Below, one piece after another: positions 384 to 25,547 of a DNA stretch of 40,996 nucleotides. Below the pieces are notes generated by a model. It was not told the DNA's origin. It saw only the letters and a program-made list of their open reading frames with translations, and made no database searches. The stretch comes from a virus. The DNA is taken from positions 1 to 40,996 of IMG/VR virus record IMGVR_UViG_3300036817_000042. One strand, written 5' to 3'. The translations under genes and the position numbers were made by a program. Every line of letters starts with the position of its first letter. Within the stretch, counting starts at the first letter, position 1.

Positions 384-1274
384 TTAGGCGGTCAAGTCTG
401 CCATCTTTTCCGCCAGCGTCCACAGTGCGCGATTGAGCTTGACGTTGCCGTCAATTCCTTTGACCTCGCGAGTCGTCACGTTGCGCCGCTTGCCGTCGGC
501 GTTGACCGACACGCCATGCATACCGCCGCGAACCATGTTCTCTTGCATCACGTTGAACGTGGTCCACAGATCGCGCGTCCCGTCCGGCTTTGCCTTATCT
601 TCCCAGCGACGCGCAGTGAGAACGCGGTCCGGCGTGACTGGCGCATCTTCCCAGCGTTCCACATCGGGGAACCGGAGCGGTAACGCGGCCTCCGCAAACA
701 AACGCTGTTGCGGCGCGGACAACAGACGCCCGCGCATATGGTCCGCAACTCCGAGCGAACGAGTAAAATCCTGGACAACGCTATAGGTTCCCTCAATCAC
801 GTCGTCTACAAGCCGGCGCTTATGCGCCACGTTCACCTCCTGGAACCGATCGCCCACGATCAGACCATTAGCGCAAATCGTGCGGAACACACCGCTCAAA
901 AGCTTGTACTTCGTGGAACCATCGTGCGAGTTAAGCATGATCAATTCCGGAATGCCGACGTCGGATCGCGTGTCGTTCTCGCGACGAAAGCGAACCATGT
1001 GCTTTGTGTAGCCGAATCGCGTGACGTCGCGCGCCTTGGCTTCGCAGGCAAAGACCGGGCGAAAGCCTTCATTCGCCAACGCGTCAATCACTTGGATCGT
1101 GGGAACGAAGCCATACGCCTCACTCCGTCTATGGTGAGCCGACTCGGCGAAAATGCTCGGAACCGCGCGGTGCAACTGATCATGCGACAATGGCTCATGA
1201 AAGTTGCCCATAAGAGCGCCGCCGGCCGTCGTGTTGGTTTGGCCGTACTTGAATTTTGCGAATGTGGCAGACAT
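384..1274 (-). CDS. DUF932 family protein, 296 aa
   Basis: Full-length member of DUF932, a family common on phages and plasmids with no settled biochemical function. Visible family hallmarks are F-P-x-x-Q-V-I-D-A-L, GFRPVFACEAKARD, the KHMVRFRR stretch, ELIMLNSHDGSTKYKL and FRTICANGLIVGD (about residues 55-150), followed by a helical C-terminal half. Start ATG at 1274 has GGGAG nine bases upstream. It is driven by promoter P2, whose -35 overlaps the end of the preceding gene, and closed by the terminator at 314-344. The family's frequent early location suggests a host-takeover or replication-linked role, which is inference. Confidence 0.9.
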   Translation of the reverse strand: MSATFAKFKYGQTNTTAGGALMGNFHEPLSHDQLHRAVPSIFAESAHHRRSEAYGFVPTIQVIDALANEGFRPVFACEAKARDVTRFGYTKHMVRFRRENDTRSDVGIPELIMLNSHDGSTKYKLLSGVFRTICANGLIVGDRFQEVNVAHKRRLVDDVIEGTYSVVQDFTRSLGVADHMRGRLLSAPQQRLFAEAALPLRFPDVERWEDAPVTPDRVLTARRWEDKAKPDGTRDLWTTFNVMQENMVRGGMHGVSVNADGKRRNVTTREVKGIDGNVKLNRALWTLAEKMADLTA

Positions 1275-1317
1275 TTCGGTTTACTCCCAAAGCCGGGGCA
1301 ACAGCGCCCGGGCAACT

Positions 1318-1349
1318 GTCAACATAGTGACGGTTTACGCTGGTGTCAA
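1318..1349 (-). promoter_or_regulatory. Promoter P2 with inverted-repeat operator
   Basis: Minus strand TTGACA (1349-1344), 17-nt spacer, TATGTT (1326-1321): a perfect -35 and a fair -10 before DUF932. GTCAAC (1318-1323) and GTTTAC (1333-1338), again 9 nt apart, repeat the P1 operator with one mismatch. The promoter overlaps the stop codon of the gene at 1335-1628. Confidence 0.7.
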
Positions 1350-1628
1350 GTCGATAGGTAGATGCGTCACAAAATCGGGTTTGCCGCTGTAACTTTGCAC
1401 GAAGGCGTAGCCGTTGTGTCCAGGCATGCCACCGCCGTACCACGACGCACGCCACTCCATTTTTTCCGCCAACGCCTTCGCTGCGGCCATGTGGTTGGCG
1501 TCAATGCTTAGCGCGTTGTCCCATTCGAGAACGACACTACCGACTGCTGCGGTTGCCTTGACGCGTCCCGGTCTATGGTTCGTCGGCGCAAGGAAATGTG
1601 TCGTGATTACCTGATACATATTGTTCAT
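1335..1628 (-). CDS. Conserved phage protein of unknown function, 97 aa
   Basis: Begins MNNMYQVITTHFLAPTNHRPG. The pattern (I-T-T-x-F-L-x-P-T-N, R-V-K-A-T-A, LSIDANHMAAAKALAEKM, a glycine-rich loop YGGGMPGHNGY) matches a small protein I associate with many phages and environmental contigs, always without known function. The chosen start at 1628 forms an ATGA overlap with the stop of the micro-gene upstream; an alternative is the ATG at 1619. It is the last gene of the unit 2425-1335. Confidence 0.75.
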   Translation of the reverse strand: MNNMYQVITTHFLAPTNHRPGRVKATAAVGSVVLEWDNALSIDANHMAAAKALAEKMEWRASWYGGGMPGHNGYAFVQSYSGKPDFVTHLPIDLTPA

Positions 1629-1777
1629 CTGCATATCCATGAGTGATCTGTTTGAGATTTGTGGAACCATTGGCAACGGTGCGACGTCGGCGCAGGTTCA
1701 CACGGCGATTGCGCTTGTGGTGTGCTCGCGAGGACAAACGCGAGCAACACCAGTACAATTGCGAGGACTATTTGCAT
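1625..1777 (-). CDS. Micro-gene for a 50-aa exported peptide
   Basis: A 50-codon frame that fits exactly between its neighbours: the ATG at 1777 overlaps the last codons of the gene at 1768-1938, and its TGA (1627-1625) overlaps the next ATG. It starts MQIVLAIVLVLLAFVLA, a strongly hydrophobic 17-residue stretch, followed by A-Q-S, a plausible signal peptidase site. The short mature part has four cysteines and several histidines and tryptophans. I infer a membrane-anchored or periplasmic peptide. The ribosome site is weak, so translational coupling is likely. Confidence 0.55.
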   Translation of the reverse strand: MQIVLAIVLVLLAFVLASTPQAQSPCEPAPTSHRCQWFHKSQTDHSWICR

Positions 1778-1938
1778 TGCTCGCAAACCAGCACCCGCAC
1801 GCGTTCGCTCGCCGCGTCGCGTTCGGCTTGCGTCTTCGCGTGATTGAACTGATAGAAAGGCGACGTTTCATCAGTCGCGTGGCACTCGCATTCTCGCGTA
1901 GGCAAGCCGGAGTGCGGACAAATCCGAGTATCGGTCAT
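1768..1938 (-). CDS. Small Cys-rich, possibly zinc-binding protein, 56 aa
   Basis: Starting at ATG 1938 (GGAG eight bases upstream) it encodes MTDTRICPHSGLPTRECEC and ends VLVCEQCK. Cysteines C-x(8)-C-x-C near the N-terminus and C-x-x-C at the C-terminus could form a zinc ribbon. The longer frame to 2025 would overlap the upstream gene by 47 nt and has no ribosome site, so I prefer the short form. Function unknown. Confidence 0.65.
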   Translation of the reverse strand: MTDTRICPHSGLPTRECECHATDETSPFYQFNHAKTQAERDAASERVRVLVCEQCK

Positions 1939-1978
1939 TAACCATGCTCCATGCACAATGGCGGTGTGTGTGATACGG

Positions 1979-2425
1979 TTATTGGTGGGCATAGCCGTCT
2001 GCTTCAATGCCGAACACAACGCCATTGATCATGCCCATCCAGCAACCGTTTAGCCCGTCCCAGCGAAAGAACCGCCGAAATTCATCGTAGGATGCGGCGT
2101 TGTGCGGCTGTGTCTCAAACAGGCGCAAGCATGCGGCCTCTTCTTTCTCATTCATCTGACGCTCAAGAACAATGCGCGCCTGTTCTTCCGCCAACTTTGC
2201 CGCCGCCCGTTCCTCGCGTTCGGCCATGACTGAGTTGTGCGCGTTCTCGATCGCGTCGGCCATACGCTTTGCATAGGCAGTATCGCCAACTTGATAGACA
2301 ATGCGCGCCACCACATCGCCCTTCGTGTTGCGGGCGTTGATGCACACTGCATCGCCGTCCTGCGTCGCGCGCAGAACAAAATCATGATCGCCGCTGTTCG
2401 GCCAAACGTAAACACTTGCTCCCAT
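1979..2425 (-). CDS. Hypothetical coiled-coil protein, 148 aa
   Basis: First gene of the minus-strand unit ending at 1335. From ATG 2425 (GGAG ten bases upstream) the N-terminal 60 residues look like a compact beta domain (ASVYVWPNSGDHDFVLRATQ), followed by a charged helix rich in Glu and Ala (about residues 75-115) and a short C-terminal domain (FFRWDGLNGCWMGMINGVV). A longer frame to 2485 would start inside operator P3 and is unlikely. No family recognised. Confidence 0.65.
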   Translation of the reverse strand: MGASVYVWPNSGDHDFVLRATQDGDAVCINARNTKGDVVARIVYQVGDTAYAKRMADAIENAHNSVMAEREERAAAKLAEEQARIVLERQMNEKEEAACLRLFETQPHNAASYDEFRRFFRWDGLNGCWMGMINGVVFGIEADGYAHQ

Positions 2426-2460
2426 GACACCGTTGCTCCATCGCGGGCTTGATTGCCCGT

Positions 2461-2495
2461 GTGTCAACAATAGCAACGTTGACACGCGACGTCAT
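2461..2495 (-). promoter_or_regulatory. Promoter P3 with perfect inverted-repeat operator
   Basis: GTGTCAAC (2461-2468) and GTTGACAC (2478-2485) form a perfect 8-bp inverted repeat with a 9-nt centre, the best copy of the operator seen at P1 and P2. A -10 TATTGT (2472-2467, minus) sits across its left half, with a weaker -35 ATGACG (2495-2490) 17 nt upstream. Confidence 0.6.
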
Positions 2496-2776
2496 GCGGC
2501 GAGTTGACGCAGACAGAAATCTGTTGATTGTAACAATTTGTGTGTTGACGCTCACACGGCATTCTAGCGGCGTCTACATGCGTTCTGTTGCTTTTGGCTA
2601 TGTAGGTAGCTCACGGTCCGGAATCGCCGATCCAATGTATTCATCACGCGATACACGCGGCGCTCACCGTCAACAGGTTGCATGTTTTCGTGTTGACATT
2701 CAACCGACAGCGATCGAAAAATCTCCAAAAAAAAATTGGGAAGTCCAACAGAACAAAAGTGGAACGGTGGTATACC
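2486..2776. promoter_or_regulatory. Divergent control region with GTTGAC half-sites
   Basis: Non-coding gap between divergent operons. Further copies of the operator half-site occur as GTTGAC at 2503-2508, GTGTTGAC at 2542-2549, GTCAAC at 2669-2674 and GTTGAC at 2692-2697. It must hold the promoter for the plus operon starting at 2777, but I find no convincing -35/-10 pair: TTGACA at 2693-2698 has no good -10 at 17 nt. A poly-A stretch lies at 2728-2735. Confidence 0.55.
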
Positions 2777-2995
2777 ATGAGAACCTATGATGAGCATATA
2801 GAGTGGTGCAAGCAGCGCGCGATGGAATATTTGAATCGCGGTGACCTCGTGAACGCCGTGGCGTCCATGACCTCTGACCTCAACAAACATAATGGAACAC
2901 GAAACATCAACGCTTACATTCTGCTGCTTGGCGCGATGCGCGCGCAGGAACAAGATGCAGACGGCGTACGCCGTTGGATAGAAGGATTCCGCTAA
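2777..2995 (+). CDS. Conserved phage protein, 72 aa
   Basis: Starts MRTYDEHIEWCKQRAMEYL at ATG 2777. The order H-x-x-W-C-K-x-R-A-x-E-Y-L, then G-D-L-x-N-A-V-A-S-M-x-S-D-L-N-K-H, and the ending V-R-R-W-I-E-G-F matches a small all-helical protein I recall from many tailed phages and some plasmids, of unknown function. First gene of the plus operon. The next ATG overlaps its TAA. Ribosome site GGTGG is modest. A longer upstream frame (from 2678) lacks conserved sequence. Confidence 0.8.
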   Translation: MRTYDEHIEWCKQRAMEYLNRGDLVNAVASMTSDLNKHNGTRNINAYILLLGAMRAQEQDADGVRRWIEGFR

Positions 2996-3210
2996 TGCTC
3001 AAGCTCAAGGCCGTAACGCCCGCGCTGGAAGGAACGGTTGAAGACCCCAAGATCGCGACAATCCTTGTCAATCCGGATCATGTCGTCTGCATCACGGAGC
3101 ACGAGACAAATCCGAAATGGTCGCGTGTCAATCTGTTGGATGATTACGAGTTCATTGTGGAGGGATCGCCAACCGATCTGGCAAAGCTGCAATGGAGAGA
3201 ACCACTATGA
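2995..3210 (+). CDS. Small protein of unknown function, 71 aa
   Basis: Starts MLKLKAVTPALEG at 2995 inside TAATG, with GAAGGA eight bases upstream. Predicted mostly beta: VNPDHVVCITEHETNPKWSR, then VNLLDDYEFIVEGSP. The V-N-P-D-x-V pattern recalls small phage and flagellar FlbD-like proteins, and resembles the N-terminal part of the protein at 25547-25855. Function unknown. Translationally coupled on both sides. Confidence 0.7.
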   Translation: MLKLKAVTPALEGTVEDPKIATILVNPDHVVCITEHETNPKWSRVNLLDDYEFIVEGSPTDLAKLQWREPL

Positions 3211-3611
3211 GACGAGGATTCAGACGTGAATGGAAAGAGGCCGCAACCCAGCACGCGCGCGGGTTTGATTCGTATTCGTTTCCCCCGTCATCGTTCCTTC
3301 CGGCCGGACCTTACAATTGGCCACGGATGCCGTATCCGTATCTCCTCGGCCATCGGTACCCGCAATGGCTGCATCACCGCGTCTACTGGTACGATGTTGA
3401 CCTCTGGCTTTGGTTCGATTGGTGGAACTGGGCCTTATGGTTTCGCCTATTCCAACCCGGCGCGTCGCCGTTTCGTACGCAGTATCTGCAACCTGACATT
3501 GTTGGACATACGATGCTCCGATTCCAGCGCGAGCTAAGGCCATGGGCGGCCGATCGCGGCGTGCAAGGTCGCGACGTCGTGATTGACATTGCGCGAGGTG
3601 CAACACGATGA
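3207..3611 (+). CDS. Tryptophan/tyrosine-rich protein, 134 aa
   Basis: ATG 3207 overlaps the previous stop (ATGA) with GGAGAG upstream, so it is clearly part of the operon. Composition is extreme: residues about 40-85 (from YNWPRMPYPYLL to WNWALWFRLF) contain some eleven Trp and many Tyr, Pro and Phe. The last 45 residues look like an ordinary soluble segment. It may be peripheral or membrane-active, but no clean transmembrane helix is visible because charged residues and prolines interrupt it. No family recognised. Confidence 0.65.
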   Translation: MRRGFRREWKEAATQHARGFDSYSFPPSSFLPAGPYNWPRMPYPYLLGHRYPQWLHHRVYWYDVDLWLWFDWWNWALWFRLFQPGASPFRTQYLQPDIVGHTMLRFQRELRPWAADRGVQGRDVVIDIARGATR

Positions 3612-4123
3612 CTGATCGGACGGTCCCGTGCAACGGCTGCCGCGCATGCTGCCTGACTGACCTCATTATCTTGCATCCGGAGTGCGGCGACCGGCCGGAC
3701 GATTACCAGACTGTTGATGTGAGCCATCCGTTCACCGGCCAACGCGTCAAGGCGCTTGCCCGTAAAGCCAACCTTGAATGTGTTTACTTGGATGACCAAG
3801 GCTGTACGATACACGATCGCGCTCCCGCGATCTGTCGGGAGTTCGATTGTCGCCGCATGTACCTTGGATACACGCGGGCGGAACGCAAGCGCATGGTGCG
3901 AGATGGCTTGATGGGCAAGGACGTGTTTGAAGCCGGGCGAGAACGCTTGGCCAGTCTGGAGAATGGAAGTGAGTTCAAAGCAGCAAGTCAGCCAAAAAGA
4001 CGCGATCAAGCTGGCCGAAAAAGTCGCGAGGATGACAGGCGACAAGGTGTTCGCACTGCGGGCGGCGTCGCTCAAGCAGAAACTGCACCAGAAGCCACTG
4101 AAGCCGATCATTGCGAAGATTAA
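3608..4123 (+). CDS. YkgJ-like CxxCxxCC cluster-binding protein
   Basis: Residues 8-15 are C-N-G-C-R-A-C-C, the signature of the YkgJ/UPF0153 (CxxCxxCC) family, thought to bind zinc or an iron-sulfur cluster. Matching downstream parts are ARKANLECVYLDDQGCTIHD and APAICREFDCRR, which supply four more cysteines. The start at 3608 overlaps the previous stop (ATGA). The last 50 residues are low-complexity and overlap the next gene out of frame by 161 nt, so this tail may be non-functional read-on. Cellular role of the family is not established. Confidence 0.85.
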   Translation: MTDRTVPCNGCRACCLTDLIILHPECGDRPDDYQTVDVSHPFTGQRVKALARKANLECVYLDDQGCTIHDRAPAICREFDCRRMYLGYTRAERKRMVRDGLMGKDVFEAGRERLASLENGSEFKAASQPKRRDQAGRKSREDDRRQGVRTAGGVAQAETAPEATEADHCED

Positions 4124-4292
4124 CGCGCCGACATGGAAAGCCCGTGCCAAGCTTATCGGCGTCAGCCGGCAAGCGATGTGGCGATGGTTCAAAGAGCCGG
4201 GTGCGCCGGGTTCGGCGCGTCCAAACATCGATCAAGCAACACGGATCGCCAAGTTGACCGGCGTTCCGGTGGAAGTGATCAGGGGGGAATGA
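3963..4292 (+). CDS. Helix-turn-helix DNA-binding protein, 109 aa
   Basis: The second half carries a Cro/XRE-like helix-turn-helix: ARAKLIGVSRQAMWRWFKEP, then N-I-D-Q-A-T-R-I-A-K-L-T-G-V-P, the usual order for operator-recognition helices. The first half is a basic helix. It is a candidate for the repressor that reads the GTCAAC/GTTGAC operators (inference). Start choice: ATG 3963 with GGAGA nearby; ATG 4032 is also possible and would remove most of the overlap with the YkgJ-like frame. Its TGA overlaps the next ATG. Confidence 0.7.
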   Translation: MEVSSKQQVSQKDAIKLAEKVARMTGDKVFALRAASLKQKLHQKPLKPIIAKINAPTWKARAKLIGVSRQAMWRWFKEPGAPGSARPNIDQATRIAKLTGVPVEVIRGE

Positions 4293-4555
4293 TGGTCAAG
4301 GGTTTGAGGCAGACCGGGCGCAACGGCCCCTTCGCGACATTTGAGCCGGAAGTCAGCGCAACGACCGGCATGATGGAAGCGATCATGGGGCCGCTACGCG
4401 AGTTCGCTCGGAAGACCGATGCAACGCTGGCGCGGCTGGAGGCCAAGATGGAAGTCATGCAGCGGGAAATCGATCAATTGAAAGGATTCCAAGTGCGTGG
4501 GCCACTTGTCTGTCGCGGCGGCTGGCGCTCGCATGTGGTGTTACCCCAGGAGTGA
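4289..4555 (+). CDS. Short coiled-coil protein, 88 aa
   Basis: Starts MMVKGLRQTGRNGPFATFEP behind a strong AGGGGGG ribosome site, overlapping the HTH stop codon. Residues 33-69 form a heptad-like helix (FARKTDATLARLEAKMEVMQ and following). Ends just before the ERF gene. Function unknown; an accessory to HTH or ERF is only suggested by position. Confidence 0.6.
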   Translation: MMVKGLRQTGRNGPFATFEPEVSATTGMMEAIMGPLREFARKTDATLARLEAKMEVMQREIDQLKGFQVRGPLVCRGGWRSHVVLPQE

Positions 4556-4559
4556 CACA

Positions 4560-5312
4560 ATGAACGACATGGTGCGCAAAACCCCGGCGATGAACCTGAG
4601 CGAGTTCATCACCACTTTCATGAACGATCCCGGCATCACGGCGGACAAGCTTGACGCCGTGCTGCGGATGCGGCGCGAACTGCTGGCGGAGGAACAACGC
4701 GAATTGTTCCATGAGGCGTTCGCGGCCATGCAGGCAGAAATCCCGCAGGTCCGCAAAGATGGCGTGGTCGAATTGCGCAAGGACGGTAAAAGATTTGGCA
4801 GCTACAAGTTTGCCCGCTGGGAAGACATGGACAAGGTGTTGCGTCCAATCCTGGTACGGCACGGCTTTTCGCTGCGGTTCAACAATGTGAGCGCCGATGG
4901 CAAGCTTGTCGTACGCGCCTTCCTGATGCGGGGCGGTTTTGAAGTCTTTGCTGATAGCCCACCGCTGCCACCCGATACTGGTCCCGGCCGCAACTCGCTC
5001 CAGGCCGCCGGGTCCAGTACAAGCTATGGCAAACGCTACGCCGCCGAATGTGTGCTCAACATCGTGCGCCAGGGCGAGGACAACGACGGCATCGGCGTTG
5101 AAGAGACGTTGACCAAGGGTGAGTTCAATTTCATCGCAGGTCTGCTGAAGAAGACCAAGGTTGAACTGCCCGTATTCCTGCAAGCGATGGCACCATACAC
5201 CGACCGTCTTGACGGCATACGCCGCCGTGACTACAACTCGTGTGTTAACGCTCTGAACATCAAGCTTCGCAAGCAGGAGGCAGGAAATGGAAATCAACGG
5301 CAAACCGGTTGA
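4560..5312 (+). CDS. erf: ERF-family single-strand annealing recombinase
   Basis: 250 residues, usual size for the ERF family of phage annealing proteins (P22 Erf type), which pair complementary single strands during recombination and genome circularisation. Hallmarks: FHEAFAAMQAEIPQVRKDG near the N-terminus, YKFARWEDMDKVLRPILVRH in the middle, and the near-invariant GSSTSYGKRYAAECVLNI followed by an acidic E-D-N-D-G around residues 155-185. ATG 4560 has AGGAG eight bases upstream. It is paired with the YqaJ exonuclease at 7884, making a two-component recombination system like Red or RecET. Confidence 0.93.
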   Translation: MNDMVRKTPAMNLSEFITTFMNDPGITADKLDAVLRMRRELLAEEQRELFHEAFAAMQAEIPQVRKDGVVELRKDGKRFGSYKFARWEDMDKVLRPILVRHGFSLRFNNVSADGKLVVRAFLMRGGFEVFADSPPLPPDTGPGRNSLQAAGSSTSYGKRYAAECVLNIVRQGEDNDGIGVEETLTKGEFNFIAGLLKKTKVELPVFLQAMAPYTDRLDGIRRRDYNSCVNALNIKLRKQEAGNGNQRQTG

Positions 5313-5715
5313 AGATGCCACATCGCCGCTCAAAGTCATCATAACGCCGCGTGATTGTAGCTTAGGCCAAGTTAAAAATCCGGCGACGTGCGCTGTCTCT
5401 CGCGCAATCGTACGTGGCTACAAATGCATATCGGCAAGAGTCCATGTCTCAAAGACCTATATCGAGTTTAACAATCGATGGGTCCGTTATCAGACACCTG
5501 AAGCGTTGACGTACGAGATTCGCGCTTTCGATCGTGGCGGCCGGTTTGAGCCGGGTGATTATATGCTTGTCCCGGTATCGCCTGGACAGACTTTAATCGC
5601 GCTAGAGAAACGCAGAAGCACAAAATCAGATAAGCGCACGCGCCATGACAACAACACAGCGCGACGCCAACTGCACCGCATGACCGGCATCCGACCGAAA
5701 GGAGGGAATCGATGA
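5287..5715 (+). CDS. Conserved phage protein, 142 aa
   Basis: Overlaps the ERF 3' end by 26 nt, with GGAGG just upstream of ATG 5287. The pattern D-C-x-x-G-x-x-K-N-P-x-x-C-A-V-S-R-A-I, then V-H-V-S-K-T-Y-I-E, WVRYQTPEALTYEIRAFDRG and FEPGDYMLVPVSPGQ matches a phage-borne family of unknown function. The C-terminus is basic (KRRSTKSDKRTRHD). Its position between ERF and the helix-hairpin-helix protein hints at DNA metabolism. Confidence 0.75.
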   Translation: MEINGKPVEDATSPLKVIITPRDCSLGQVKNPATCAVSRAIVRGYKCISARVHVSKTYIEFNNRWVRYQTPEALTYEIRAFDRGGRFEPGDYMLVPVSPGQTLIALEKRRSTKSDKRTRHDNNTARRQLHRMTGIRPKGGNR

Positions 5716-6785
5716 ATGAGAACGCCAAGAACGTTGCCATCATGGTGCGCGGCGCGTATGACCTCCAGAAGTTGCGTATGCAGATGGGTCTACGCTTGGT
5801 CGGAAATTTCCGCGCCAAGCTGAAGGTGATGCCGGAGATAGGGAGCAACCCGAAGACGGACAGCGTGCCAACGTCGGCCAGCAACCCAACGCAGACAAGC
5901 GCGCCGAAGGCCAAAAAGAAAGCCGTACGTCGCAGCGAGCCAGAATCCGATAGCGAACCGAAAGTGCCAAGCGAGACGGACGACGCCGAAATCACTGAGG
6001 AAGGCAAGAAGGTCATTGAAGTATTGCGTGCCTCCTATAAGCGCCTCACGGATGGCGTCGCCCGCAACCGTACGCTGCCGACACAAAAGGGTTTTCACGG
6101 CGACGAAATCATCAGCACCTATGTTGAGCTACAGCTTGTTGACCGCTACATCGACATGGAGAAGATGGAAGCGAAGACATTTCGCATGCTGACGACCTCG
6201 CTGGAGGAAATTCCGATCTACAACGAATATCTCAAGGACGTCATTGGCGTGGGTCCGGCAATGGCCGGCGTCATCATCGGCTGGTTTGATCCGCACAAGG
6301 CACGGCATGTATCCAGCTTCTGGAAATACAGCGGCCTGGACGTTGGTCCGGATGGGCGCGGCCGGTCACGCCGGCAGGAACACTTGGTCGAGCGCGAGTA
6401 CAAGGACAAGAACGGCGAATTGAAAACGCGCATGTCAATTACCTATGAGCCGTTCGTCAAGACCAAGCTGATGGGCGTGCTCGCTGGATCGTTCATCCGC
6501 ACCGGATCATCATGGCGGTTGACCTATGACGACTACAAGAACCGTTTGTTGAGCGATGATCGCAAGATCAAAGTTGGCGTGGACGAATGGAAAAAGCTGC
6601 GCAAAGCGGGTGAGGACGTGTCGGATCACTGGACACCGGGCCGCATCAACGACGCCGCCAAGCGGTACATGATCAAGATGTTTCTTGCTGATCTGTGGGT
6701 CCGCTGGCGCACCCTGGAGGGATTGCCGGTGACCAAGCCGTACGCAGAGGCTAAGCTAGGCCATCGGCCACACAAGGCAGCCTAG
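5712..6785 (+). CDS. IS110 C-terminal-like helix-hairpin-helix protein
   Basis: 357 residues. Residues about 175-215 (DVIGVGPAMAGVIIGWFDPH, then FWKYSGLDVGPDGRG) match the helix-hairpin-helix 'Transposase_20' region that ends IS110/IS116 transposases. The following RSRRQEHLVEREY and FVKTKLMGVLAGSF are typical of the phage version. The N-terminal DEDD/RuvC-like catalytic domain of real IS110 enzymes is absent, replaced by a basic start and a Ser/Thr/Lys linker (residues 45-95). No insertion-sequence ends are visible. I therefore read it as a phage DNA- or RNA-binding protein, not a mobile element. Its stop lies 7 nt before the first repeat array. Confidence 0.75.
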   Translation: MNENAKNVAIMVRGAYDLQKLRMQMGLRLVGNFRAKLKVMPEIGSNPKTDSVPTSASNPTQTSAPKAKKKAVRRSEPESDSEPKVPSETDDAEITEEGKKVIEVLRASYKRLTDGVARNRTLPTQKGFHGDEIISTYVELQLVDRYIDMEKMEAKTFRMLTTSLEEIPIYNEYLKDVIGVGPAMAGVIIGWFDPHKARHVSSFWKYSGLDVGPDGRGRSRRQEHLVEREYKDKNGELKTRMSITYEPFVKTKLMGVLAGSFIRTGSSWRLTYDDYKNRLLSDDRKIKVGVDEWKKLRKAGEDVSDHWTPGRINDAAKRYMIKMFLADLWVRWRTLEGLPVTKPYAEAKLGHRPHKAA

Positions 6786-6792
6786 CTGTTTG

Positions 6793-7566
6793 AGTAATCC
6801 GATGAAGTTCAGCGCGCCGATATGGAAGAGTAATCCAACGTCGATAGTGCGTCAAAATTGGGTAGTAAACCATTCTGGTTGAGCGCGCCACCCTAGACTA
6901 GAAACCCATTACCATACAGCGTGCCATTTATGGCAAGTAAACCAGTTGAGTACAGCGAGCCAGATTGAAACAGAAACCCAGGCGAAACGAGCGTGCCAGA
7001 CTGTAAGAGAAACCCAGCGAAACGAGCGGACCACCCACAATTAGAAATCCGATCCAGCACAGTGACCCATAGTTAGGAAACCGCCCCAGCTTAGCAAGCC
7101 GGTACTAGATAGAAACCCGTGGTGTTGAAGCGCGCCAAATTGTGATAGAAAACCAGTGCAATTAAGCGGCTTTAATCGAAGAGTAATCCACTCGTGCCTA
7201 GCGTGCCTTTATGGAATAGTAACCACCTCTCGCGCCCAGCGCGCCGCCGTGGGACAGCAATCCGGTGGATAACAGCGCGCCATCGCAGCTTAGAAATCCA
7301 GAGATACTGAGCGAACCAGCGAACCTAGAACACCAGAACGTTTAGTGCGCTACACGATGACCAGAAACCCACTCATGGCGAGCGTGTCACCTCTCGAAGA
7401 AACCCGGCAGGCCAAGCGTGCCAGCGTAACCTAGTAAACCATGTTGAAGCAGCGTGCCGCACTAATGTAGCAACCCGTGCGGAAGCAGCGCGCCCACAGG
7501 GCGTAGCAAACCAGTAAACGAAGCGCGCCAACTGTCAGCAAGAAAACCACTCATTGATAGCGTGCT
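6793..7566 (+). repeat. Array 1: alternating A/B 8-nt boxes, 18-nt period
   Basis: Forty-four 8-nt boxes in strict alternation. A = AGNAANCC (20 of 22 exact) and B = AGCGNGCC (13 of 22 exact; the rest mostly differ at one or two bases). Of 43 spacers, 31 are exactly 10 nt, eight are 9, two are 11, with one of 6 and one of 12. Spacer sequences are unrelated to one another. The base after each box is nearly always a purine. No frame is open through it: TAG, TGA and indels are frequent on both strands. The array fills the whole gap between the helix-hairpin-helix gene and 7582 and reads in the operon's direction. Function unknown. Confidence 0.9.
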
Positions 7567-7581
7567 TAACGAAAGGAAAAT

Positions 7582-7881
7582 ATGATGATTGAACTGATAC
7601 TAATAGCGACACTCATTGCCGGGACCGAGAACATACAAGTCCAAATCGGCATTGAGGATATCCAACCCGTCGGCGACTACGAATGGCCGTTGCCGCCGTG
7701 CTACTGGACCAAAAGCTGTCGCGGCCCCGATGACTATTACCAGCCGCGCGAAATCCGACCGGCCCCTTATGATCCGCGTGCGCCGCGCCGTGAGCCGTAC
7801 CGTGGCTATGGACCGCCGCCAGTCCACGAAGAACCATGGCGCGGCCCTCCGCCGTATCCGTCACCTTATCGCGGGAGGTAA
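7582..7881 (+). CDS. Exported proline/tyrosine/arginine-rich protein, 99 aa
   Basis: Begins MMIELILIATLIAGTENIQV, a short hydrophobic segment that could be a signal or anchor, without a clear cleavage site. The rest is a disordered Pro, Tyr and Arg-rich tail (EIRPAPYDPRAPRREPYRGY, ending YPSPYRGR). AAAGGA lies seven bases before ATG 7582, immediately after array 1. Only two bases separate its stop from the YqaJ start. No family recognised. Confidence 0.65.
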   Translation: MMIELILIATLIAGTENIQVQIGIEDIQPVGDYEWPLPPCYWTKSCRGPDDYYQPREIRPAPYDPRAPRREPYRGYGPPPVHEEPWRGPPPYPSPYRGR

Positions 7882-7883
7882 GC

Positions 7884-8588
7884 ATGAAGATCATCGAATG
7901 CGCGCAGTATTCGCCAGAGTGGTACAACGCCCGTATGGGGAAGCCGACGGCTTCGATGTTCCACAAGATCGTGACGCCGACCGGCCAGTTGTCGAGGCAG
8001 GCCGGTCCCTACATGTACAAGCTGCTGGCCGAGCGCCTGTTGATGGAGTCGATGCAGGATCAGCTTGGCTTTGTCGAGTGGGCCGAACGCGGCAAGCTGG
8101 AACAGCGGCACGCCGCCGCGCAATTCGAGTTCACCCACGACATCAAGCTGCGCGAGGTCGGTTTCGTGACCACTGATGACGGTCAGATCGGCTGTTCGCC
8201 AGACTACCTCTACGCCAACCGCTGCGTCGAAGTGAAATGCCCGGCCCCGTGGACGCAACTGATGTACCTGTCCGAAGGTCCCGGCGCTGACTACACGCCG
8301 CAGGTCCAGGGACAACTGATGATCGGGGAATGGGACTCCGCTCACTTCTACAGCTACCATCCTCGCATGCCGCCATATGATGCGATGCTAGGACGTGATG
8401 CCGGATACATCGGAAAGTTGGCTCACGCACTTGGCCGGTTCTTGGACGACATGAACGTCGCACACGAGCGCCTGAAGCAACTAGGCGCATACGTGCGCCT
8501 GGACGGTAATGTTCAGGGCCGGTTACCGCTGGAGCGCGCCTATCCGGAGGCGTTGCCCGAACCACTCCAGATCGAGGTTCCCGAATGA
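7884..8588 (+). CDS. YqaJ-like viral exonuclease (PD-(D/E)XK)
   Basis: 234 residues, normal for YqaJ/lambda Exo-like 5'-3' exonucleases that resect double-strand ends for an annealing partner. Motifs: PEWYNARMGKPTAS at the N-terminus, E73 in GKLEQRHAAAQFE, the catalytic core GCSPD (D107) followed by E116-V-K118 in CVEVKCPAPW, and PQVQGQLMIGEWD (about 139-151). ATG 7884 follows GGGAGG; longer frames to 7836 are unnecessary. Works with ERF at 4560. The stop overlaps the next start (ATGA). Confidence 0.92.
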   Translation: MKIIECAQYSPEWYNARMGKPTASMFHKIVTPTGQLSRQAGPYMYKLLAERLLMESMQDQLGFVEWAERGKLEQRHAAAQFEFTHDIKLREVGFVTTDDGQIGCSPDYLYANRCVEVKCPAPWTQLMYLSEGPGADYTPQVQGQLMIGEWDSAHFYSYHPRMPPYDAMLGRDAGYIGKLAHALGRFLDDMNVAHERLKQLGAYVRLDGNVQGRLPLERAYPEALPEPLQIEVPE

Positions 8589-8836
8589 AAGAGAAGTCAG
8601 AGCCGGTCACACATGAAGTCTGCATCGACGCCCGCAAGGTTGACTTCGTGGTGCGGACGATCAAGAGCATGACAATGAATCCAAATGAAGCGATGGGCGT
8701 GTTGATCGCGGCCTACATGAAAGTGTGCGAGGAATCCACACAGAATCAGATGACACAATTGGAAATGGCTGTCATCGCGCATAAGATGATCATCTCGATG
8801 GAGGATGAAACGATCCCGTCTACCAGCATGCACTGA
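8585..8836 (+). CDS. Small protein of unknown function, 83 aa
   Basis: Coupled to YqaJ by an ATGA overlap. Helical, with MNPNEAMGVLIAAYMKVCEE and MTQLEMAVIAHKMI as the main helices, and an acidic end. Last gene of the plus operon before array 2. The size and the N-terminal strand plus helices could suit a ribbon-helix-helix-type protein, but the evidence is weak. Confidence 0.65.
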   Translation: MKEKSEPVTHEVCIDARKVDFVVRTIKSMTMNPNEAMGVLIAAYMKVCEESTQNQMTQLEMAVIAHKMIISMEDETIPSTSMH

Positions 8837-8849
8837 GGCCATTGAACGA

Positions 8850-9358
8850 AGTGACCCAGCACTGTTAGCGCGCCAGTAAAGATTAGAAAACCTGAGATCA
8901 CTAGCGAACCACCTCCATTAGCAAACCGGTATAAAAAGTGGCCACTGCGCGATCAGCAAACCACACAAGAAAGCGTCAAATTTAACCTGCGCGTATTCGC
9001 ATAGGAAAGCGAGCCAAAGCAGCGAAAGCAATCCAGATGCCGGGAGCGTGCCGTGCTGTAAAGCAATCCGAGTAGCTTAGCGCGCCGTTGGAGACGAGAA
9101 ACCCAATTATTACAGCGCGTCAAATTGGTTTAGTTCACCAAAACCTCTAAGCGTGTCACAAGGCGAGAGTACACCGAACCTTTGGAGCGTACCTGCAAGA
9201 CGATAGAGAGTTGTATTAAAATCGGCATCAAAGAGTGACATATGCTATACTGATCTCGCTGTTTGACATCGTGAAATCCACCTGCGCCGACGAGGCCAAG
9301 CAACCCGGCATGCGCCAGCGTGTCACAAGTACCAAGCAACCCGCTTCGCCTTAGCGCC
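8850..9358 (+). repeat. Array 2: alternating A/B boxes, partly eroded
   Basis: About 25 boxes of the same two types as array 1, for example AGAAAACC, AGCGAACC, AGCAAACC (8884-8926) and AGCGTGCC, AGCAATCC, AGCGCGCC, AGAAACCC (9045-9103), mostly 9-11 nt apart. Order and spacing degrade at about 8977-9000 and 9200-9290. The last two pairs (from AGCAACCC at 9299 to AGCGCCCT at 9351-9358) run into the 3' end of the opposing gene. Orientation is plus, the direction of read-through from the YqaJ operon. The eroded part contains AT-rich sequence with TATACT at 9246-9251, a possible -10 without a good -35. Confidence 0.85.
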
Positions 9359-9578
9359 CTGCCAGCCACACGGACGTCCCAACGACACCAAGACAGTAGA
9401 TCGCCAAAGCCCCAAGACGATAAGCGTCGGCGTGGTCGAGCGCGAGGAACGTCAACCAGATACCTCCGATCACCGCGACCAATACAATAAGTCGCTGCGC
9501 CAGAACGGCTGTCAGCGTGCTCACCGCACCCAGCATGCCTTGCTTCCAGGCAAAGCGGGCGATGTACTCCTGCCGCAT
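9351..9578 (-). CDS. Small two-helix membrane protein, holin candidate
   Basis: 75 residues from ATG 9578, which lies 10 nt after the previous stop. Two hydrophobic segments are clear: about residues 14-40 (LGAVSTLTAVLAQRLIVLVA...) and 50-72 (GALAIYCLGVVGTSVWLAG). Size and topology fit a holin or other phage inner-membrane protein, and it is the last gene of the virion operon. A longer frame to 9737 overlaps the upstream gene by 149 nt and lacks a ribosome site. Holin is inference. Confidence 0.6.
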   Translation of the reverse strand: MRQEYIARFAWKQGMLGAVSTLTAVLAQRLIVLVAVIGGIWLTFLALDHADAYRLGALAIYCLGVVGTSVWLAGR

Positions 9579-9588
9579 GCCCTGCTGA

Positions 9589-9927
9589 TCAGCGGGCGGC
9601 GTCGAAGTCGTCGTCGTCCTCATCATCGAAGGTGATGGTTGGGGCGGCGGATCGGGCAGATTTCTTTCCGCGACCATTTCCATTCTTCTTGAACGCCGCT
9701 GCGGCGTCGCGGACGGCTGATCCTGTGAGTTCGTCATCGTTCTTATTCTCTTTGCGCAGAGCCATGAAGACGTGTTGAACGCGCGCGATGGCGATGAACG
9801 CGTTCAAGCGTTGTGGAAACGTAATATCGACCTCGTGCTTTTCCATTTCATCCAACAGCAAGCCAAGCTGCTTGTACAGCCGACTGTTGACCTTGAGTGG
9901 ATCAGCGTCTTTGTCCTTAGTTGTCAT
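9589..9927 (-). CDS. Hypothetical phage protein with acidic tail, 112 aa
   Basis: GGAAGGA precedes ATG 9927. The N-terminal 65 residues are helical (LYKQLGLLLDEMEKHEVDI, then FIAIARVQHVFMALRKENK), followed by a basic linker (KKNGNGRGKKSARS) and a strongly acidic end, D-D-E-D-D-D-D-F-D. The start overlaps the stop of the 423-aa virion protein (ATGA). Function unknown. Confidence 0.75.
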   Translation of the reverse strand: MTTKDKDADPLKVNSRLYKQLGLLLDEMEKHEVDITFPQRLNAFIAIARVQHVFMALRKENKNDDELTGSAVRDAAAAFKKNGNGRGKKSARSAAPTITFDDEDDDDFDAAR

Positions 9928-24603: not shown

Positions 24604-25155
24604 TCAGAAGCCTTGTTGTTTGGCCTTCTGTTCATCGCGAAAGATTGCGCCAAGGATTTCCTTCCGTGCCCATCCTTCAGGGTCTTTCGCAACTTCAGCG
24701 AAGCCATCGCGCTGCGCATGGTTCCAACGCTGATCGTCATACGCCTGCGTCGGGTCCGTCGTCTTGGGCGACTTAGCGGCCTTATAGGTCGCCGCAACTT
24801 CATAATCGCCGATGTTGCGCTCGATCATGAAGTCTTCAAGTTCCTTCATTGCATCATCGGTAAAGCCGTATTCGTCTTGCGTCTTCTTACGCTTCGACTT
24901 GTAGGCTTCATCGTCGGCTTGACGCCGCGCCGTCTCTGCCGCCTCACGCTCGCGATCATCGCGTTCCTTGAACCGCTGATCGACTTTCGTCTCAATGTCG
25001 TAGTCGGGAATTTGCAGAGTCGGGTACTTCTTCTTGATCAGCGCCTTTGCCTCTTTGGACAACTGCGGATCATTGTAGATCGACTCCACGAAGTCGGCGA
25101 CTTGCCGGCGTTGTTGCAGAAAATTATACTCGTCATCCTCTATTTGCCGTGGCAT
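24604..25155 (-). CDS. Scaffolding protein
   Basis: 183 residues, highly charged and helical: QRFKERDDREREAAETARRQ is a coiled coil, and the C-terminus is basic (WARKEILGAIFRDEQKAKQQ), as in scaffolds that dock to the capsid shell. Placement 28 nt before the capsid gene supports it. Repeat array 3 lies immediately upstream of its start codon, so it may lie in its leader RNA. Confidence 0.78.
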   Translation of the reverse strand: MPRQIEDDEYNFLQQRRQVADFVESIYNDPQLSKEAKALIKKKYPTLQIPDYDIETKVDQRFKERDDREREAAETARRQADDEAYKSKRKKTQDEYGFTDDAMKELEDFMIERNIGDYEVAATYKAAKSPKTTDPTQAYDDQRWNHAQRDGFAEVAKDPEGWARKEILGAIFRDEQKAKQQGF

Positions 25156-25169
25156 CGCTTTAACCTCTC

Positions 25170-25356
25170 GGATTGCTATTGCACGATGGCGCGCTGCGGT
25201 GCATCGGTTTTCACATCACGTGCGGCACGCTGCTCGACACCGGTTTACTCATCATGTCCGGCCCGCTCGCATAGTCTGGTTTACTCGTTCGAAACGGCCG
25301 CTGACGCACTCCGGTCTGCTAGGTTCGCGTGGCCCGCTCAGTCATACGGGGTTGTC
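25170..25356 (-). repeat. Array 3: A/B boxes on the minus strand
   Basis: Eleven boxes of the array 1 type, read on the minus strand. On the plus strand they appear as GGATTGCT (25170), GGCGCGCT, GGTTTTCA, GGCACGCT, GGTTTACT, GGCCCGCT, GGTTTACT, GGCCGCTG, GGTCTGCT, GGCCCGCT and GGGTTGTC (25349). Nearly all spacers are 10 nt, so the register is as strict as in array 1. It begins within the 3' end of the gene at 25338 and ends 14 nt before the scaffold start codon. The three frames contain TAG/TGA stops. Confidence 0.88.
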
Positions 25357-25547
25357 TGCTTTGGTTCGAACCAATAAGCATCTAATCCACAGAAACCTTC
25401 AGTGAACCGGATGAAGTGAAGTTGCATTTCATGAACGGGCGCGCTGCCGACGAGCAATTCAACAGCCCGCGCCACACGCGGATTGTTGCAATGAGCGACG
25501 CCATTGTTGACGTAGTAACGGCAGTCGATACAGGAAGGCCGTGCCAT
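25338..25547 (-). CDS. Cys-rich small protein, likely zinc-binding, 69 aa
   Basis: MARPSCIDCRYYVNNGVAHC gives C-x-x-C and a third Cys; GFCGLDAYWFE supplies a fourth. This is the layout of small phage zinc-finger-like proteins of unknown role. ATG 25547 overlaps the previous TAA (TAATG). The last six codons lie in array 3. Confidence 0.75.
   Translation of the reverse strand: MARPSCIDCRYYVNNGVAHCNNPRVARAVELLVGSAPVHEMQLHFIRFTEGFCGLDAYWFEPKQTTPYD

What the first reader, a model, noticed from the sequence alone, without database searches (positions are those of the whole stretch)
6793..7566. Array 1: 44 alternating 8-nt boxes with 10-nt unrelated spacers
Boxes A (AGNAANCC) and B (AGCGNGCC) alternate without a single miss over 774 nt, and 31 of 43 spacers are exactly 10 nt. 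Chance expectation is about one A box per 4 kb. Spacers are not repeated, so this is not simple tandem duplication: the boxes are kept while spacers drift, which implies selection on box sequence and spacing. The 18-nt period is not a multiple of the helical turn (10.5), so it does not suit proteins stacked on one DNA face. It better suits recognition of RNA or single-stranded DNA, or a filament wrapping the DNA. It is not CRISPR (boxes and spacers too short, no cas), not iterons of usual kind, and not coding. I know of no described element like it.
Basis: seen in the sequence. Interest (0 to 1): 0.95.

Follow-up and report, generated by a model that had tools for sequence, protein, structure and literature searches.

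The report
TIGR guide-RNA array beside phage tasA
The striped repeat is an array of short guide RNAs of the TIGR-Tas kind, first described in 2025, in a phage that also encodes the matching nuclease-free Tas protein; the array itself is a new member of a known system, and the unusual part is that another piece of guide array sits in-frame inside the Tas gene.

Summary
Array 1 (6775-7566, + strand) has 45 alternating boxes: 23 edge repeats (AGCGNGCC) and 22 loop repeats (AGNAANCC), with spacers mostly 10 nt. It is a TIGR dual-repeat array (Faure et al. 2025, PMC12045711). The gene ending at its first box (5712-6785) encodes a Tas protein without a nuclease domain, i.e. TasA: NCBIfam TIGR_Tas_endo 108 bits, cutoff 100; its predicted fold matches TasH and TasR. 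Of 85 loci encoding Tas relatives, 77 carry the same kind of array. Across about 1,200 repeat units, the 3' half of each edge repeat co-varies with the 5' half of the next edge repeat rather than with its own, as expected in a processed guide RNA.

Most likely the array is cut into about 36-nt guides, each with two spacers, that lead TasA dimers to DNA. Targets are unknown; I found no enriched ones. Spacers are replaced wholesale between relatives rather than drifting.

The less ordinary parts lie outside the finding. A 9-box array is nested in-frame inside tasA (5844-5994) and encodes a disordered linker absent from 44 aligned relatives. A second case lies in a relative's recT gene. More arrays lie at 8850-9360 (+) and 25152-25357 (-).

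The parts
6775..7566 (+). TIGR array 1: 23 edge repeats (AGCGNGCC) alternating with 22 loop repeats (AGNAANCC), giving 22 edge-spacerA-loop-spacerB-edge units of about 36 nt
   Evidence: Chain score 464 against a maximum of 23.7 in 60 shuffles; starts and ends with divergent edge repeats (AGGCAGCC, AGCGTGCT)
5712..6785 (+). tasA: 357-aa Nop-type Tas protein with no nuclease domain
   Evidence: NCBIfam NF052498 TIGR_Tas_endo 108.4 bits, cutoff 100; sequence hits to TasR 9mty and TasH 21kl; AlphaFold model pLDDT 85, ten best PDB fold matches all TasH or TasR; no Pfam nuclease; Shine-Dalgarno-like AAGGAGG before the ATG
5844..5994 (+). Intragenic TIGR array: 9 boxes in-frame inside tasA (codons 45-94), encoding a disordered S-N-P / S-V-P linker
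   Evidence: Score 80; beats synonymous recoding in 2000 of 2000 trials; insertion absent from 44 aligned relatives; pLDDT below 50 at residues 44-78 and 80-91
8850..9193 (+). TIGR array 2: 20 boxes, partly degenerate
   Evidence: Score 150
9281..9360 (+). Short TIGR array 2b: 5 boxes
   Evidence: Score 39
25152..25357 (-). TIGR array 3: 12 boxes on the opposite strand among head genes; its last edge repeat contains the start codon of the next gene
   Evidence: Score 102
4497..5312 (+). ERF-type single-strand annealing protein gene, upstream in the same strand run
   Evidence: Pfam PF04404, E 1.3e-11
7836..8588 (+). YqaJ-type recombination exonuclease gene, between arrays 1 and 2
   Evidence: Pfam PF09588, E 3.8e-11

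Best explanation
Array 1 is the precursor of TIGR guide RNAs for the TasA protein encoded just upstream. Transcribed with tasA on the + strand, it would be cut within each edge repeat into about 36-nt tigRNAs: edge 3' half, spacer A, loop, spacer B, next edge 5' half. Two edge halves pair weakly (edge position 6 with position 3 of the next edge; 7 with 2). A TasA dimer holds edge and loop through the shared AG/CC(A) ends, so that the two spacers can pair with opposite strands of an 18-20 bp DNA target. This TasA has no nuclease domain, so it should bind and bend DNA rather than cut it. The most plausible effect is to block or bias expression, replication or inheritance of competing mobile DNA or of host genes. 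Shown here: family membership, array anatomy, unit boundaries from covariation, co-occurrence with tas, spacer turnover. Inferred from Faure et al.: processing, DNA binding. Inferred only: the biological role. The confidence given is for 'TIGR guide array serving TasA'; for the competition role alone I would say about 0.45.
For: Tas family assignment by sequence, above the curated cutoff, and by fold. 77 of 85 Tas-relative loci carry arrays found with the window's own matrices, 130 of 131 array segments lie on the tas strand, and reversed-sequence controls give none; a strict pattern hits 30 of 40 whole records, with 0 hits of the reversed pattern. In the whole set of loci, gaps are 10 nt in 2568 of about 2780 cases and an A follows the box in 77% of relatives' boxes, i.e. 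a 9-nt repeat ending CCA plus a 9-nt spacer, the published geometry. Covariation: edge_i position 6 with edge_i+1 position 3 leaves 22 unpaired of 1207, against 56.5 expected within locus (0 of 2000 permutations), 111 of 1327 within the same edge and 108 of 1207 in the reverse direction; positions 7 and 2 leave 22 against 36.8 (0 of 2000); the window alone leaves 5 against 7.6 (3 of 2000). This matches the edge-edge pairing in the TasR structure.
Against: No rho-independent terminator was found after array 1 on the + strand, unlike the typical published arrays; array 1 runs straight into the next gene. No DNA target was found: spacer pairs matched the phage's own genome and about 1 Mb of related phage loci no better than re-paired controls. 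Several edge repeats deviate from consensus, so not every unit need be functional. Transcription, processing and binding were not observed.
Confidence: 0.93

Rival explanations
1. The boxes are DNA sites for a protein (iteron, ParB-like or repressor array, or a wrapping filament), with spacers irrelevant.
For: Regular spacing; Faure et al. report ParB-like genes beside some tasA genes.
Against: Covariation runs between successive edge repeats in one direction only, which double-stranded DNA sites do not explain. Arrays lie on the tas strand in 130 of 131 cases; a set of DNA sites would not need that. Spacers are turned over as wholes.
Confidence: 0.02
2. It is a TIGR array, but the guides act mainly inside the phage programme: TasA directed to phage or host genes as a repressor, or as an RNA-guided helper of the neighbouring ERF/YqaJ recombination genes, rather than against competing mobile elements. 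(This differs from the best explanation in role, not in what the array is.)
For: The effector is nuclease-free, the array sits among ERF and YqaJ genes, ERF (5) and RecT (4) recur among 112 tas-neighbour proteins sampled, and arrays are spread over two strands and several operons.
Against: No enriched match of spacer pairs to the phage's own genome. Spacers differ completely between near-identical relatives, which suits changing foreign targets better than fixed self targets. Most neighbours are not recombination genes.
Confidence: 0.3
3. The array is a relic: a decaying TIGR locus no longer used.
For: 10 of 23 edge boxes depart from the strict consensus and array 2 contains broken boxes.
Against: tasA is intact with well-predicted structure. 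Deviating edges tend to keep pairing with the next edge (only 3 of 2000 permutations reach the window's value). Chance decay would break pairs at random.
Confidence: 0.05

Closest known systems
TIGR-Tas dual-repeat systems, TasA type (Faure et al. 2025, Science, PMC12045711)
   Same: Two alternating short repeats, 9-10 nt spacers, 36-nt period, shared box C/D-like ends, edge-edge pairing with covariation, Nop-type Tas effector next door, phage genome
   Different: Longer than the usual 5-15 units; no terminator found; repeat ends AG...CC(A) instead of UG...CCA of TasR; further arrays on both strands and one nested in-frame in tasA itself
TasH of Salicola phage CGphi29 (SpTasH) and TaTasR
   Same: Same Nop core: ten best PDB fold matches, about 20-27% identity
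   Different: They carry HNH or RuvC nuclease domains; this protein does not
IS110 (IS621, ISCro4) bridge-RNA recombinases
   Same: Related RNA-binding fold (ranks 11-18 of the fold search)
   Different: No N-terminal DEDD catalytic domain here; long array instead of one bridge RNA
Archaeal box C/D snoRNP (Nop5)
   Same: Weak fold resemblance and similar guide logic
   Different: No fibrillarin or L7Ae partner seen; guides are in tandem arrays
CRISPR arrays
   Same: Repeats interspaced by unique, replaced spacers
   Different: Two alternating 8-9 nt repeats, two 9-10 nt spacers per guide; no Cas effector or Cas1/Cas2 was seen in the proteins scanned

Membership tests
TIGR-Tas (dual-repeat) | Two distinct alternating 8-12 nt repeats | tested here: met
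   45 alternating boxes, score 464 against 23.7
TIGR-Tas (dual-repeat) | Spacers of about 9 nt (up to 12), unique | tested here: met
   31 of 44 gaps 10 nt, others 8-12, all unique; relatives: an A follows the 8-nt box in 77% of cases, so a 9-nt repeat plus a 9-nt spacer
TIGR-Tas (dual-repeat) | Array adjacent to a gene for a Nop-domain Tas protein | tested here: met
   NF052498 above cutoff; TasH/TasR best fold matches
TIGR-Tas (dual-repeat) | Edge and loop share the box D and box C ends | tested here: met
   Both begin AG and end CC(A)
TIGR-Tas (dual-repeat) | Edge repeats pair across the guide, supported by covariation | tested here: met
   6-3' and 7-2' pairs across units, 0 of 2000 permutations
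TIGR-Tas (dual-repeat) | Array starts and ends with a truncated edge repeat | tested here: met
   AGGCAGCC at 6775 and AGCGTGCT at 7559, each keeping the guide-side half
TIGR-Tas (dual-repeat) | Rho-independent terminator after the array (typical, not universal) | tested here: not met
   No + strand terminator in 3000-9800; the next gene starts 16 nt after the array
TIGR-Tas (dual-repeat) | Processing into 36-nt tigRNAs bound by Tas; RNA-guided DNA binding | not testable with these tools
   Needs small-RNA sequencing and binding assays
TasA subtype | Solo Nop domain, no HNH or RuvC nuclease | tested here: met
   No Pfam domain; model starts directly with the first long helix, no N-terminal nuclease fold
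IS110 transposase | N-terminal DEDD RuvC-like catalytic domain | tested here: not met
   No such domain in Pfam scan or model; the P0001 scan does not list NCBIfam IS110
CRISPR-Cas | One 25-36 nt repeat type and Cas genes | tested here: not met
   8-nt alternating repeats; no Cas family in the window proteins scanned

The most novel reading that the evidence does not exclude
TIGR arrays can live inside translated genes and feed back on them. In this phage a guide array is nested in-frame in tasA itself, so Tas-dependent processing of those guides would cut the tasA messenger: a built-in negative feedback on the effector. A relative carries the same arrangement in the tail of its recT gene, which would couple guide production to loss of the recombinase message.
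Probability: 0.3. Interest if true: 0.7.

Novelty: new member of a known kind. Interest (0 to 1): 0.5.

Why it matters
TIGR-Tas is a recent RNA-guided family whose natural targets, processing enzyme and way of gaining spacers are open questions. This locus and its relatives give three usable facts: the processed unit boundaries can be read from covariation alone; spacers are exchanged wholesale while tas stays 95% identical, which points to active turnover; and arrays can be nested in coding genes, including the effector gene, which suggests a testable feedback circuit. The array in the finding is by itself an ordinary, long example.

Tried and rejected
Rfam search of the region: no match. Spacer-pair targets in the phage's own genome, both geometries, gaps 0-2: same as re-paired controls. 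Spacer-pair targets in about 1 Mb of non-redundant Tas-phage loci: 28 against 20 hits at one mismatch and 519 against 460 at two, no clear excess. I did not search the big collections for 18-nt pairs: by a back-of-envelope estimate chance alone would give several perfect matches per 2 billion bases for the window's guides, so there is no power. Apparent arrays running through tas in L046 and L078 were merging artefacts of the chain method, removed by an X-drop split. A general lack of in-frame stop codons in spacers (a sign that arrays are often translated) was mild and not phase-specific enough to claim. The window's other neighbour proteins have no detectable relatives near tas in other loci except weak ERF matches in two.

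Full report
1. The observation. A chain search with two 8-nt weight matrices, forced to alternate, gives one unbroken chain of 45 boxes at 6775-7566 (score 464). The best chain in 60 Markov shuffles of the window scores 23.7. Exact matches to the strict consensus are 20 of 22 loops and 13 of 23 edges; 31 of 44 gaps are exactly 10 nt. Every frame on both strands holds 8-21 stops, so array 1 is non-coding.

2. The effector. The gene at 5712-6785 has a Shine-Dalgarno-like start and encodes 357 residues. It passes the curated NCBIfam cutoff for the TIGR-Tas family (108.4 against 100 bits), and in the PDB it matches only TaTasR (9mty) and TasH, more strongly with a profile of relatives. The AlphaFold model (mean pLDDT 85) has as its ten best PDB matches TasH and TasR complexes, then IS110 recombinases, then weakly Nop5. 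No Pfam nuclease domain is present, so by the published scheme it is TasA. The NCBIfam name says 'endonuclease', which does not fit a member without a nuclease domain.

3. The relatives. Protein-guided scans of viral and genome collections gave 85 loci with Tas relatives. With the window's own matrices, 77 of them show arrays; counting the window, 130 of 131 segments lie on the tas strand. The same scan on reversed sequences finds none in 86. On 40 whole records a strict edge-loop-edge pattern hits 30, and its reversed version none. In relatives an A follows the 8-nt box in 77% of cases (2183 of 2820), so the true unit is a 9-nt repeat ending CCA plus a 9-nt spacer, as published.

4. Which strand and which unit. 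If the array makes tigRNAs, each guide runs from the 3' half of one edge to the 5' half of the next, and those halves pair in the TasR structure. In 1207 successive edge pairs, position 6 with next-edge position 3 is unpaired only 22 times, against 56.5 expected when partners are shuffled within the locus (0 of 2000), 111 of 1327 inside the same edge and 108 of 1207 in the reverse direction. Position 7 with next-edge position 2: 22 against 36.8 (0 of 2000). In the window alone, 6-3' is unpaired 5 times against 7.6 (3 of 2000); 7-2' is uninformative there. The direction of the pairing fits a guide RNA read on the + strand and not DNA binding sites.

5. How arrays change. L003 and L004 have tas genes 95% identical and not one shared spacer among 23 and 13; some closer pairs share runs of identical spacers and differ by whole units. 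In matched units mismatches are rare in both boxes (4 of 464) and spacers (12 of 580); since units were matched by their spacers, the spacer figure is a lower bound. So spacers are replaced as wholes; they do not drift.

6. Targets. Spacer pairs were tested in both possible strand geometries with gaps 0-2. The phage's own genome and about 1 Mb of related loci gave no excess over re-paired controls. The natural targets remain unknown, as in the original paper.

7. Other arrays in the window. Four more stretches exceed every shuffle: 5844-5994 (+), 8850-9193 (+), 9281-9360 (+) and 25152-25357 (-). The last lies among head genes and its final edge repeat contains the start codon of the next gene. 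A relative, L052, has four further arrays on the strand opposite to its tas gene, in other parts of its genome. A Tas protein can act in trans, so distant arrays are no problem, but Faure et al. describe arrays next to tas.

8. An array inside a gene. The 5844-5994 array is in-frame within tasA; seven of its nine boxes fall in codon phase 0, reading Ser-Asn-Pro or Ser-Val-Pro and the like, and it is stop-free in that frame. It coincides with an insertion absent from 44 aligned relatives (58 residues against a median of 12 between the flanking columns) and with the only long low-confidence stretch of the model. Synonymous recoding of the same residues never reaches its score in 2000 trials, so the nucleotide pattern is more than a by-product of the amino acids. 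L052 shows a second case: 12 boxes, 11 in codon phase 0, in the tail of a RecT gene (PF03837, E 4.8e-39), again 0 of 2000. A word search of the main text of Faure et al. for 'intragenic' or 'within the gene' finds nothing; their supplements were not readable here, so priority is not settled.

9. Reading. Array 1 is a long but ordinary TIGR array of the TasA type. Processing and DNA binding are inferred from the published family. The role is open: competition with other mobile DNA is the simplest reading given spacer turnover; control of host, phage or recombination functions is a live rival, given the nuclease-free effector and the ERF/YqaJ neighbours, though only 9 of 112 sampled tas neighbours are ERF or RecT proteins. 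The nested array in tasA suggests feedback, because Tas is required for processing in the published system; this is a hypothesis.

Noticed in passing
window 5844-5994: TIGR array nested in-frame inside tasA, encoding a disordered linker not found in 44 aligned relatives.
   Followed up: yes
L052 6088-6294: Second coding TIGR array, in the C-terminal tail of a RecT annealing-protein gene, 11 of 12 boxes in codon phase 0.
   Followed up: yes
window 25152-25357 (-): TIGR array among head genes on the opposite strand; its last edge repeat supplies the start codon of the next gene.
   Followed up: partly
L109 (part of the L052 contig) 864-7115: Four more arrays on the strand opposite to tas, far from it; two units share spacer A 'accgtaaaa' but differ in spacer B, a trace of unit duplication.
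   Followed up: partly
L078 5314-10657: Very large arrays on both sides of tas, about 226 boxes in all.
   Followed up: partly
L063 7998-9068: The tas reading frame runs on into the downstream array, extending the protein.
   Followed up: no
L003 from about 6203: The array follows an ATG and stays open in one frame for a long stretch (Arg-Lys-Pro / Ser-Glu-Pro repeats), so it may be translated.
   Followed up: partly
window 4497-8588: The TIGR locus sits in a run with ERF annealing and YqaJ exonuclease genes; ERF or RecT genes occur near some other tas genes.
   Followed up: partly
L017, L018, L019, L020: Tas with arrays in bacterial MAG contigs labelled Hydrogenedentota, Neomarinimicrobiota, Acidipila and Spirochaetaceae; whether these are prophages was not checked.
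   Followed up: no
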